From assembly GCA_019309115.1 (NCBI GenBank), contig JAFDGW010000016.1, forward strand, positions 1-51,668: a stretch of DNA of 51,668 bases, given 5' to 3'. The translations under genes and the position numbers were made by a program. Under the pieces are notes generated by a model. That model ran no database searches, was not told the origin of the DNA, and saw nothing but the letters and a program-made list of their open reading frames with translations. Of the stretch, positions 4,427-51,668 are shown in pieces. The first letter of the stretch is position 1, and the number at the start of each line of letters is the position of its first letter. Origin of the DNA: Deltaproteobacteria bacterium. GTDB lineage: Bacteria > Desulfobacterota > Syntrophobacteria > Syntrophobacterales > Thermodesulforhabdaceae.

Positions 4427-7200
4427 ATCTCGCCAGGTTCAATTGTTGTGGCGCCTGCTTCAGTATCTATAAGCCCTAACTTTTTGTCATATTTATAATC
4501 GGCAAAGTAAAGGTTTTTGCACCATCGTAATAGACGCTTACGATCCCCGTTTGACAACAAACGTTCATAATCCTCGCTTAAATTGTTATTACTGATTGAA
4601 TCCAGACATTCCAGGTCTCTTATCCACAATTCGACGGGTTCAAACCTGCGACTTTTCTCTTGATCCATGCTAAAGGGAATCTGGATCACGAACTTTGCAA
4701 ATATCTCTTTCTTAAAACTGGTGTAAAGCCTCTGAGAACTTTTGTACCTCCCGAAGAACGTGCATACCTCATTGATAAAATCGTGCTTCATTTCTCTTGG
4801 AATTACGGAAATTGTAAATATTTCTCTGAAAAGCTTATGGGCCTCTTCTTTGCGATCCGACATGTATCCAGCATCGAGAATGTCCTTTGTCTGCCGGAAC
4901 TTGAGGAGGTAACTACTATCCGCTGGTAGGGATTTGTAGAAATTTTCGACAAGTTCGTGCTTTTCAAACTCGCTTATTTCAAATTCGGCTCCTTTAAACC
5001 AAAGGTTGCTGTCAATAATTGTGGAAAGTACGTCCTGACTTTTCTTCTTTCCACGTTTCCTCTTCTTGGCCTGTCCCGTGTTCTCAGCGATGACTTCTAT
5101 AAATTCACGGTTAAAAAATTCCGAAAGTATTTCTTTTTCTTTGTTTGCGTATTCGTTGGGAACTTCTTTCAGGTTTCCAATCCCTTTTTTCAATAACCAG
5201 GCCAAAGAGAGGTTTAAAAGCTCTTTATTATAAACCAATCCTTTTCCTGATTCTGTCCCATTTTTAAAAAGCCACACAACCACATTCGCTTCTGTTGGCT
5301 CGGGTATGTCATCAAGGTTGACCGTCAGTCCATACCTTCTGAGCACCCTTCCCATGCGTTGAACAAGGGAGTCCATTGGGGCAATCTCGGTAAAAAGAAC
5401 ATCGGCATCAAGGTCAAGTGATGCCTCTACAACCTGGGTTGCTACGAGGATTTTTCCTTCAGATTCATCTTTGGGCTTGGGGTTGCTGAATTCAAATGCA
5501 ACGATTTCTTCAAGATCTTTACGATCATCCAGCGTAAAGCGTGAATGGAGAAGCCAGAGCTTGTCTTTTAAGCCATTGAAGTCTTTGTCAGATTCTGTTT
5601 TCTCCCTCAACCTGCAGAAAATATCCTGGGCCTGTTTGACAGTATTGGCAACGACAAGCACACGCTTGCCCCACTTCGCCTGGCCCAGAATCTTTGTCAA
5701 TTGTTCATCTGGAAGAGAAAAGCTAGTATTGCCTTCGCTAGAATCATTTTCAATCAACTCAATCTTGACTTTATGTTTCCTAATATCTTTAAGGCAATGT
5801 TCTTCTTTTTTGTATAAATTGATTTTTTCGTAACAGTCAGTTCCAATCGCATCGTCAATTTCGTTCAGGATAAATAAAGGCAAAGTGGCGGTCATTAGAA
5901 GGAATTTCCCGCCCATGCGCACAGTGTCCTCTATGAACTTGACCACAATGGCGACAGCGCGTGGATCGTATGCCTGAACTTCGTCAATAATGAGCCGCGA
6001 GTAAGAAAGCGTGGCATAAATCTTCTCATATCCAGGTGGACGCAGGGCATAGGGAAAGAATTGATCACCCGTTGAAACTATCACAGGAAGAGCTAACTGC
6101 CGAGCGAGATCATAGGCTTTCATGCTTGATTGTTCTTCTCCGCCGTCTCCCATAAGGAAAACATCTGCGTCGGAATGAAGTAAGCCAGTCTTATCCTGGC
6201 CAAAAATTCCGATGGCCCGTGCATAGATCTGGTTAACCGCTGCTCGAAGGGGAAGCGTGTAAAAAGACTTTTCGTCACTACCCCAGAGAAAAGCGAACTC
6301 GGTCTTTCCATAACCAGTGGGTGCGATCAAAATGACATTCCTGTCCTCATGACCTTCAATTTCTTGGATTTGCCATATATTTACCGATTTCCCTTTATCT
6401 TTCCCTTTTATTCTTGTTTCTACTATTTCTTTAACCTTCCGAAAACCAAGAGAATATTTCTCTACTTCTGCTGTTTGTAGATCTTCCCCCTCTTCCTCAC
6501 AAAATGAAGCAAAGTGATCTGCACGCTGCAAAAAACCGGCAATGAGTATCCATGTGCGCATATCCTGTTCATCCAGGCCCGCACGTTTCGGAAGAAAATA
6601 AAGCTGATATGGTGGACGGGCATACTCCGAGAAGGGAACTCCGTTTCGCAGGCCCCGAGCAATATTCTCATTAAAATCTATGAAATCCTGCCATTCGTGC
6701 TTTAATCTTTGAATTTCTGCCAGCAGGTTTTCCCGAAGCCGATCTTTTACCGGGTCTATTGTGTCCAGTAAATCTGCAATCTCTTGGCTGGGAGTGCTGA
6801 TGAGTTCAAAGAAATTATCCCGCCAGTGATGATAGGCGATGGCGGAAACCAGAAACTCCCGGTAAGCTTCAGCATGATCCCGATGATCCTTGGCTAACTT
6901 CTTCTGCAACTCTTCTTCATTTATCCAGAGTATAGAAAAAAAAGAATGAGGAATGTTGATAAGGGGAAAATTAGGGGTGTAATGCTTGTTTTTGAGTGTC
7001 CGAACCTGGAAAGCTGGAAGCACTTTGCCTAGATCGTGACACACAATGGCAAGACGAATGAGATCACTCAGGGAATCACTGAGATGGTGACTGATTCTAT
7101 CGAAAGATTCCAGAGCATCCCGTATGTGCTCATGCAGGCGAATGAATTTGCCTGCTTCTTTTACGCCGCCTTTCGCGTAAATTGGCGAGGGTGCTTTCAT
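4420..7200 (-). CDS. cas3: CRISPR-associated nuclease-helicase Cas3
   Basis: This 926-residue Cas3 is the nuclease-helicase recruited by Cascade to shred target DNA. The N-terminal HD nuclease domain carries LHEH (H23), CHDLGK (H55, D56), H85 and the paired histidines at 124-125. The superfamily 2 helicase follows: Walker A APTGYGKT at about 293-300, a DEVQAYD Walker B at about 406-412, TATLP at about 437-441, and motif VI QRMGRVLRR at about 614-622. HD and helicase are in one chain, as usual for I-B. ATG at 7200 has GGGAGG 6 bp upstream and lies 2 bp after the cas5 stop. No catalytic residue seems to be missing. Confidence 0.97.
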   Translation of the reverse strand: MKAPSPIYAKGGVKEAGKFIRLHEHIRDALESFDRISHHLSDSLSDLIRLAIVCHDLGKVLPAFQVRTLKNKHYTPNFPLINIPHSFFSILWINEEELQKKLAKDHRDHAEAYREFLVSAIAYHHWRDNFFELISTPSQEIADLLDTIDPVKDRLRENLLAEIQRLKHEWQDFIDFNENIARGLRNGVPFSEYARPPYQLYFLPKRAGLDEQDMRTWILIAGFLQRADHFASFCEEEGEDLQTAEVEKYSLGFRKVKEIVETRIKGKDKGKSVNIWQIQEIEGHEDRNVILIAPTGYGKTEFAFLWGSDEKSFYTLPLRAAVNQIYARAIGIFGQDKTGLLHSDADVFLMGDGGEEQSSMKAYDLARQLALPVIVSTGDQFFPYALRPPGYEKIYATLSYSRLIIDEVQAYDPRAVAIVVKFIEDTVRMGGKFLLMTATLPLFILNEIDDAIGTDCYEKINLYKKEEHCLKDIRKHKVKIELIENDSSEGNTSFSLPDEQLTKILGQAKWGKRVLVVANTVKQAQDIFCRLREKTESDKDFNGLKDKLWLLHSRFTLDDRKDLEEIVAFEFSNPKPKDESEGKILVATQVVEASLDLDADVLFTEIAPMDSLVQRMGRVLRRYGLTVNLDDIPEPTEANVVVWLFKNGTESGKGLVYNKELLNLSLAWLLKKGIGNLKEVPNEYANKEKEILSEFFNREFIEVIAENTGQAKKRKRGKKKSQDVLSTIIDSNLWFKGAEFEISEFEKHELVENFYKSLPADSSYLLKFRQTKDILDAGYMSDRKEEAHKLFREIFTISVIPREMKHDFINEVCTFFGRYKSSQRLYTSFKKEIFAKFVIQIPFSMDQEKSRRFEPVELWIRDLECLDSISNNNLSEDYERLLSNGDRKRLLRWCKNLYFADYKYDKKLGLIDTEAGATTIEPGEIW

Positions 7201-50528: not shown

Positions 50529-51065
50529 TCATCCGGACACTATTCCAACAAAGCCGTTAACCATAAACTGAACCGCCAGTACGGCTAGAAGAAGCCCCAT
50601 AATCCTTGAAAGCACCTTGATCCCACTCAGTCCCAAGGTTTTTCGAATGTAGGTTCCAAAAGAAAAAGTGAGAAAGATGGTACAGCACACCAAAACTGTA
50701 GCCAGAATAATGAGCCATGAATACGATCCTCCGGTATAGGAATGACGCCACACCAACACCGCCGTTATTGCGCCGGGTCCTGCAAGCAGGGGCGTAGCAA
50801 TGGGCACAAGGGCCACATTTTCACGGCTTAGGCTTTCCTCCTCCTCTTGAGCACTGGTTTTCATACCCGTAGGCAGCAACTGAAGCATTTGCAGAGCGTA
50901 AAGGAAAAAAATGAATCCTCCCGCGATCTGGAAAGCGGGAATGGAAATATCAAAAAAATTGAGGATTGCATCTCCACCCCACACGAACAGAATTAGTACA
51001 ACGGCCGAAGCAAAAGCCGCCTCAGCGGCTATCCGAATTTGTTCTCTTCGGGTACAGTGATTTGT
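50529..51065 (-). pseudogene. marC-family membrane protein gene, 5' end disrupted
   Basis: The recognisable MarC part begins about TNHCTRREQIRIAAEAA and continues through FFDISIPAFQIAGGFIFFLYALQMLQ, ATPLLAGPGAITAVLV and GLSGIKVLSRIMGLLLAVLAVQFMVNGF, to a normal C-terminus. The expected first membrane helix with the family NPxG motif is missing. Instead the frame runs back through sequence that is antisense to an IS607-type tnpA. The gene therefore seems to have lost its start by insertion of that element. An in-frame ATG at 51113 has no ribosome binding site. It could still make a chimeric protein, but a pseudogene is more likely. Confidence 0.7.
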
Positions 51066-51086
51066 AAAAAGGAGGTTGACAACAGT

Positions 51087-51108
51087 TGCTAAATAGTGCG
51101 CATTAGCA
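51087..51108. repeat. Short inverted repeat near the left end of the IS607 remnant
   Basis: TGCTAA at 51087-51092 and TTAGCA at 51103-51108 form a perfect 6-bp inverted repeat at about the junction between marC and the element. IS607 elements lack long terminal inverted repeats, so its meaning is unclear. Confidence 0.3.
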
Positions 51109-51118
51109 TACATTAATA

Positions 51119-51427
51119 TGGTCGTTAAGTGCACAGCAAATAAAAGAGCTTTTTGGTATTCACAGGAACACTCTGCTGAAATGGGAGAAGGAGGGTCTTC
51201 TACAACCTGTAAGGACGCCGGGTGGTAGGAGAAGGTATAGGAAAAAAGATGTAGAGAAGCTACTTGGGATTTGTGAAGAAGAGATAGAGAAAGCTGATGT
51301 AATTTTGTATGCACGTGTACCAACAAAAAAGCAGGAAGAGTATTTAAGGAATCAGATTGAAAGACTTGAATGCTTTGCAAGGGAGAAAGGTTGGAATTAC
51401 GAAGTAATCTCAGAAATAGCAAAGTGA
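51119..51427 (+). pseudogene. tnpA: IS607 serine recombinase tnpA, remnant
   Basis: Translation in this frame gives a MerR-like helix-turn-helix (QIKELFGIHRNTLLKWEKEG, then RTPGGRRRYRKKDVEKLLG) followed by the start of the serine-recombinase domain (VILYARVPTKKQEEYLRNQ) and a stop after VISEIAK. The catalytic serine expected in YARVS reads proline. About 100-120 C-terminal residues are missing, and the frame has no proper start codon: a TAG lies at 51104-51106 and the ATG at 51118 is in another frame. The gene is inactive. The N-terminal region matches IS607 TnpA best; a MerR regulator alone is unlikely because of the recombinase segment. Confidence 0.85.
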
Positions 51428-51448
51428 CTTCCTTTGCAGCAAGAGTTT

Positions 51449-51668
51449 ATGGTTCTCGTGAAGGGAAAAAGAGAAATGATAACTCTTTCATGCAGACTGG
51501 AGTTTAAAACAGCAAAAGAAGTATTGGAACTTCTACGAAACTTTTCGTCGTGCATACGGTATGCATACAACAGACTCCTTGAAGGGATGGACAGAAAGGA
51601 ACTAAAGAAACATTTGCAAAAGATATTTCCTCTCAATTCAAGATACTGTGATGACGCTATTATGAAAG
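51449..51668 (+). CDS. tnpB: TnpB (IS607/IS605 family), N-terminal part, truncated by window end
   Basis: The partial frame reads MVLVKGKREMITLSCRLEF, then a segment with CIRYAYNRLLEG and FPLNSRYCDDAIMK, which matches the start of TnpB, the RNA-guided nuclease ancestor of Cas12. The open frame runs to the window edge with 73 codons. A TTG about eight codons earlier (TTG CAG CAA GAG TTT ATG) is an alternative start. The RuvC residues and the downstream guide-RNA region would lie outside the window, so activity cannot be judged. Confidence 0.85.
   Translation, partial: MVLVKGKREMITLSCRLEFKTAKEVLELLRNFSSCIRYAYNRLLEGMDRKELKKHLQKIFPLNSRYCDDAIMK

What the first reader, a model, noticed from the sequence alone, without database searches (positions are those of the whole stretch)
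51070..51668. IS607 remnant: dead tnpA (Ser to Pro, internal deletion) beside an apparently preserved tnpB
tnpA has no start codon, lost the catalytic serine and its C-terminal half, while the tnpB frame starts cleanly right after it. Preservation of TnpB without a working recombinase can mean domestication or simply recent decay; the element also replaced the start of marC.
Basis: partly seen in the sequence, partly recalled or inferred. Interest (0 to 1): 0.5.

Follow-up and report, generated by a model that had tools for sequence, protein, structure and literature searches.

The report
Decayed IS607 copy inside marC
A common bacterial jumping gene landed in a membrane-protein gene and has since lost its cut-and-join enzyme and a piece of its probable guide RNA; near-identical copies with an unbroken enzyme gene sit elsewhere in the same genome, so this is ordinary recent decay.

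Summary
The window is a whole contig (C1) of a 72-contig genome and the element runs off its end. tnpA here has no ATG/GTG/TTG start, Ser to Pro at 51320, and a frameshifting 223-bp deletion. Two other left halves in the genome (C10, C38; 94-98% identical) keep full-length tnpA frames with the serine. The missing right half was found: contig C51 ends in a tnpB C-terminus, followed by the right end and the missing start of marC. Joining the flanks at the shared GG gives a gapless marC frame, so marC is interrupted, not replaced. C51 also lacks 105 bp of a conserved structured RNA, probably the guide-RNA scaffold, which C20 (as far as it reaches) and relatives keep. tnpB is open in both visible parts and keeps the RuvC-III aspartate, but about 257 codons with the other two catalytic residues are not in the assembly. 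C1-specific substitutions are not rarer in tnpB than in dead tnpA (tiny counts). A survey reports 30% of TnpAs in such IS607 loci as pseudo (PMC11061315, passages). Verdict: ordinary decaying insertion.

The parts
50529..51075 (-). marC, 3' part (from ...LLFTNHCTRREQIRIA to the stop), cut by the element; the 5' part is on contig C51 (L044)
   Evidence: PF01914 161.5 bits; gapless alignment across the junction to MarC of 4 relatives once the flanks are joined
51070..51075 (+). target sequence AGGAGG, left flank: GG core of insertion, with AGGAG as TAM-like motif
   Evidence: AGGAGG before the left end in C1, C10 and C38; GGAGG in 9 of 9 and AGGAGG in 7 of 9 comparable left ends, L060 having none to compare (read by eye); published IS607 TnpB TAM 5'-AGGAG (PMC11061315, passages)
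51076..51121 (+). left end of the element (TTGACAACAGTTGC...)
   Evidence: shared boundary of three copies
51122..51427 (+). tnpA remnant, 101 codons then TGA; no ATG/GTG/TTG start
51320..51322 (+). codon of the (recalled) catalytic serine, now Pro
   Evidence: alignment with C10 and C38; position
51422..51423 (+). junction of the 223-bp deletion in tnpA relative to C10 and C38
51423..51504 (+). surviving 3' end of tnpA (about 27 codons), out of frame with the remnant, overlapping the tnpB start
   Evidence: matches within residues 178-206 of C38 TnpA
51476..51668 (+). tnpB, first 64 codons, open, cut by the contig end; C-terminal 173 codons are on C51 (L044, minus strand)
   Evidence: 70% identity to residues 1-67 of the TnpB of L076, a same-family genome; Pfam PF12323 E 0.0011, below its cut-off

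Best explanation
The feature is the left half of an IS607-family insertion sequence that jumped into marC at a GG inside AGGAGG and then decayed where it sat. Shown: three left ends and three right ends of one element type in this genome; two copies with full-length tnpA frames; this one with a dead tnpA and, on the partner contig C51, a 105-bp loss in the 3' part of tnpB that overlaps a conserved structured region. Inferred: that region is the guide RNA (omega/reRNA) scaffold; the loss spoils this locus's own guide RNA; tnpA died after insertion; tnpB is not under selection here. The parent element would have worked as IS607 elements are known to: TnpA moves it at GG sites, and TnpB with its RNA cuts empty sites to keep it in place.
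For: Window = contig C1. Two other left halves at 94-98% identity with open tnpA frames and serine. Right halves on C51, C49 and C20 with the same terminus TTAACCAGG. Joining C51 and C1 flanks at GG gives ...MDPIGNLPFFL-LFTNHCTRREQ..., gapless with MarC of four relatives; C38 and C49 flanks carry two successive parts of one ThiF-family protein (profile 3-160 and 181-212). 105-bp loss on C51 against L060 and L076, and against C20 for the part that C20 covers. The region folds far better than shuffles in C20 (z -5.45) but not in C51 (z -1.09). C1-specific substitutions in tnpB 3 of 84 columns (2 of the 3 change an amino acid, read by hand) against 3 of 350 in tnpA.
Against: The middle of tnpB (about 257 codons by comparison with L076) is missing from the assembly, so tnpB could be whole or broken. 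The C1-C51 pairing rests on marC having one strong match in the genome and on the frame fit, not on reads spanning the element. Substitution counts are very small. The guide-RNA assignment has no Rfam match and no expression data; the folded C51 stretch is longer than the C20 one and includes coding sequence, so the two z-scores are not a strict pair. C51, C49 and C20 all lack an RNA arm that L060 and the Firmicutes copies have, so the copies with open tnpA may not be fully active either.
Confidence: 0.92

Rival explanations
1. Domesticated TnpB: tnpA was lost but tnpB is kept for a cellular role, using a guide RNA made in trans from the other copies (C10 and C38 with their right halves).
For: Both visible tnpB parts are open, and the C51 part keeps the RuvC-III aspartate (DKDVTGAFVIGRRG) at 70% identity to the TnpB of L076.
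Against: 105 bp lost in the tnpB 3'/guide-RNA region of this copy; C1-specific substitutions not rarer in tnpB than in dead tnpA (tiny counts); marC uninterrupted in the 4 relatives aligned and open at 200-265 aa without stops in all 12 relatives that matched; near-identical copies with open tnpA point to recent arrival.
Confidence: 0.03
2. Assembly artefact: the C1 left half is a chimera of element copies made by a repeat-collapsing assembler.
For: All three left halves stop at contig ends in tnpB, and the shared middle was not found in the genome.
Against: C1 carries private substitutions and a private 223-bp deletion, and continues 109 bases past the end of the others; a chimera of C10 and C38 would not give these.
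Confidence: 0.04

Closest known systems
IS607-family insertion sequence (serine recombinase TnpA + TnpB)
   Same: TnpA with N-terminal MerR-type HTH and Resolvase domain, NF033518 match in the C38 copy; insertion at GG with no longer target duplication; tnpB overlapping the tnpA end; AGGAG before the left end
   Different: this copy is decayed: no start, Ser to Pro, 223-bp and 105-bp deletions
IS607 copies in thermophiles and relatives (L055 Aquificaceae; L057 and L058 Caldanaerobacter, L059 Thermoanaerobacter; L060 Desulfobacterales MAG; L076 in a genome of the same family)
   Same: TnpA 71-81% identical (74% for L076); TnpB of one kind, frames of 494-544 aa in L055-L057; similar termini
   Different: L055, L056 and L057 have both frames open; L060 holds an even shorter internal-deletion copy; L076 has a broken tnpA N-terminus beside an open tnpB
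IS607 TnpBs with RAGATH-18-derived reRNA (PMC11061315, passages)
   Same: IS607 TnpA partner, AGGAG motif, structured RNA at the right end, many pseudo TnpAs
   Different: TnpB here is longer than their average of 390 aa, its RNA region overlaps the tnpB 3' end whereas theirs is said to be independent of the coding sequence, and no Rfam guide-RNA family matched in 7 loci
TldR-type domesticated TnpB (recalled; named in the abstract of PMC13418256, search listing only)
   Same: TnpB-derived protein away from a working transposase
   Different: no loss of RuvC residues is visible, no conserved host-gene association seen, guide-RNA region partly deleted

Membership tests
IS607 family | serine-recombinase TnpA with N-terminal HTH | tested here: met
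   C38 TnpA: NF033518 222.5 bits (cut-off 110), E 3.1e-66; Resolvase and MerR above cut-off; the C1 remnant still hits both Pfam families above cut-off
IS607 family | insertion at a GG dinucleotide without longer target duplication | tested here: met
   empty site from C51 and C1 flanks restores the marC frame; C38 and C49 flanks fit one ThiF-family protein
IS607 family | tnpB downstream, overlapping the tnpA end | tested here: met
IS607 family | working recombinase (catalytic Ser, full frame) | tested here: not met
   not met by this copy; frames and serine present in C10 and C38; activity not testable here
TnpB RNA-guided nuclease | RuvC D-E-D residues | tested here: inconclusive
   third D present on C51; the D and E of RuvC-I and II fall in the missing middle; candidates for all three visible in L055 and L076 (residues assigned by eye)
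TnpB RNA-guided nuclease | complete guide-RNA scaffold at the right end | tested here: not met
   conserved structured region in 9 right ends; 105 bp of it missing on C51; that the region is the guide RNA is inferred
domesticated TnpB | conserved position and purifying selection without TnpA | tested here: not met
   marC uninterrupted in the 4 relatives aligned; no deficit of substitutions in tnpB, though counts are tiny

The most novel reading that the evidence does not exclude
The tnpA-less copy still makes an active TnpB that borrows guide RNAs from the two sister elements and so helps them persist: an unselected or newly recruited trans-acting TnpB.
Probability: 0.04. Interest if true: 0.4.

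Novelty: new member of a known kind. Interest (0 to 1): 0.12.

Why it matters
Little beyond annotation. It resolves an apparent 'preserved TnpB, dead TnpA' case as ordinary decay, maps a disrupted marC across two contigs, and gives empty-site reconstructions consistent with GG insertion at AGGAGG for a thermophile-type IS607 with a long TnpB.

Tried and rejected
Rfam search of 7 loci at E up to 0.1 gave no guide-RNA family; the single hit, a plant microRNA model on the opposite strand of L055 (24.6 bits, cut-off 50), was rejected as chance. A PDB sequence search with L055 TnpB found nothing at E up to 0.01. No structure prediction was run, since the TnpB of the window is not whole. A search for the last part of the window elsewhere in the genome gave no more than noise beyond 51559 at DNA level and one 42%-identical protein match on C55, a different TnpB-like frame, so the missing middle could not be supplied. 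The DUF2192 hit of the C51 fragment (29 bits, cut-off 21, residues 29-104) was set aside as probably spurious. In one search I took 8 relative loci of the 12 non-own genomes that matched; a motif filter kept 4 (L063-L066), and 4 (L067, L068, L070, L073) were dropped before alignment. For the sister copies I first took the restored frame as proof that C38 pairs with C49; on checking, C10 joined to C49 also leaves an open frame, so the pairing now rests on Pfam: C38's flank matches ThiF 3-160, C49's flank ThiF 181-212 (E 0.00082, 19 bits, below the cut-off of 28.1), C10's flank DUF4911. Domestication and chimera readings were considered and rejected as above.

Full report
What the window is. The window equals contig C1 (51668 bases) of a 72-contig, 2.51-Mb genome held as G000. 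The element therefore runs off the contig end, and the 'end' of tnpB at 51668 is an assembly limit.

The observation. Translation of 51092-51668 gives a tnpA frame beginning ...IWSLSAQQIKELFG..., with YARVPTKKQ in place of YARVSTKKQ, then a TGA, then a tnpB frame MITLSCRLEF.... There is no in-frame ATG, GTG or TTG at the start of the protein; C10 has TTG where C1 has TCG. Relative to C10 and C38, C1 lacks 223 bp of tnpA, and the frame breaks. About 27 codons of the tnpA C-terminus are still readable out of frame.

Sister copies. A DNA search of the own genome found two further left halves: C10 (98% and 96% in two pieces) and C38 (94% and 95%). Their tnpA frames are open over their full length and have the serine (207 and 212 residues open, no stop inside). 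C38 has an ATG start; C10 would start at TTG. C10 and C38 end at contig ends at the same base of tnpB, so the repeat probably broke the assembly.

The other half. A Pfam MarC search of the own genome found the C1 gene, one weak hit to profile positions 2-25 on C51 (18.4 bits, below the cut-off) and one chance-level hit on C9. C51 ends (base 6290) inside a tnpB-like frame, followed inward by an element end and then the start of marC. Two more right ends with the identical terminus TTAACCAGG lie at the end of C49 and the start of C20. Joining the C51 and C1 flanks at the shared GG gives an uninterrupted MarC that aligns without gaps across the junction with MarC of four relatives (L063-L066). 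In all 12 relatives with a MarC match the frame is open (200-265 aa, no stops inside). So marC was interrupted by a clean insertion; its start was not replaced. For the sister copies, C38's flank matches the ThiF profile at 3-160 and C49's at 181-212 (the latter weak, E 0.00082), whereas C10's flank matches DUF4911. C38 and C49 are thus probably one insertion, and C10 and C20 partners by elimination. Frame openness alone does not decide it, since C10 joined to C49 is open too.

Target. The left end is preceded by AGGAGG in C1, C10 and C38. Of six other loci with a comparable left end (L054-L059), all have GGAGG and four AGGAGG; L060 has no comparable left end (read by eye). The TAM of 23 IS607 TnpBs was 5'-AGGAG in 18 of 22 strains and 5'-GAGGG in 4 (PMC11061315, passages read).

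tnpB. The C1 part (64 codons) and the C51 part (173 codons; 138 aligned) match residues 1-67 and 325-462 of one TnpB in a same-family genome (L076) at 70% each. They also align in order to single frames in L055 and L057. About 257 codons lie between them and are absent from the assembly, including the RuvC-I aspartate and RuvC-II glutamate (residues assigned by me from the alignment and from knowledge of the family). The RuvC-III aspartate is present on C51. The C51 frame lacks 35 residues (105 bp, counted by hand on L060) that L060 and L076 keep; C20 keeps the last 70 or so bases of that stretch, where its contig begins.

Guide-RNA region. The last 184-263 bases before the right end align among nine copies from C20 to Thermoanaerobacter. 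A consensus structure has 52 pairs, of which 19 show at least one two-sided change; a number of pairs are broken in some copies, related sequences are counted separately, and no control for relatedness was run. C20's 184 bases fold at -84 kcal/mol, z -5.45, 0 of 200 shuffles as good. The last 236 bases of C51 give z -1.09, with 25 of 200 shuffles as good. The missing piece includes the 5' side of the main stem predicted in C20. I infer that this is the omega/reRNA scaffold and that this copy's own scaffold is broken. Rfam has no match to a guide RNA. Against a simple picture: C51, C49 and C20 all lack an arm of the RNA that L060 and the Firmicutes copies have.

Decay or domestication. C1-specific substitutions, counted where C10 and C38 agree, are 3 of 84 columns in tnpB, 3 of 350 in tnpA and its tail, and 1 of 46 in 51080-51125 (this one is in the start codon). 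Two of the three tnpB changes alter an amino acid (read by hand). The counts are too small for a rate, but give no sign that tnpB is protected. Relatives show the same kind of decay. L060 carries a tnpA that runs by deletion into sequence near the right end (read by hand), and that right end is 98.9% identical over 94 bp to a second one nearby. L076 has a broken tnpA N-terminus beside an open tnpB. A published survey says that 80% of the IS607 loci it found encode both TnpA and TnpB, and that 30% of those TnpAs are pseudo proteins (PMC11061315, passages). A dead tnpA beside an open tnpB is therefore ordinary.

Verdict. A probably recent, decaying IS607-family insertion in marC. Two paper searches were made (19 and 5 papers listed), and passages of two papers were seen (PMC10711439, PMC11061315).

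Noticed in passing
window 50529-51422 (-): A 297-aa open frame runs from inside the element (antisense to tnpA) into the rest of marC; it looks like a mechanical fusion across the insertion point, not a new start for marC.
   Followed up: partly
L060:4001-4625 and L060:3129-3568: A Desulfobacterales MAG carries an internal-deletion derivative in which tnpA runs into the right-end region, beside a right end of another copy facing the other way; the two right ends are 98.9% identical over 94 bp.
   Followed up: partly
L076:1417-3449: A genome of the same family has a copy with a broken tnpA N-terminus but catalytic serine kept, beside an open TnpB of at least 500 aa with candidates for all three RuvC residues.
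   Followed up: partly
L035 and L036 (starts of C71 and C48): Two contigs begin in near-identical 3' ends of a different TnpB element (...NADVNGARNI...), so more than one element family seems to break this assembly.
   Followed up: no
C51, C49, C20 right ends (L044, L052, L053): All three right ends found in this genome lack an RNA arm (roughly 60 bases) present in L060 and the Firmicutes copies; whether the shorter RNA works is unexplained.
   Followed up: partly
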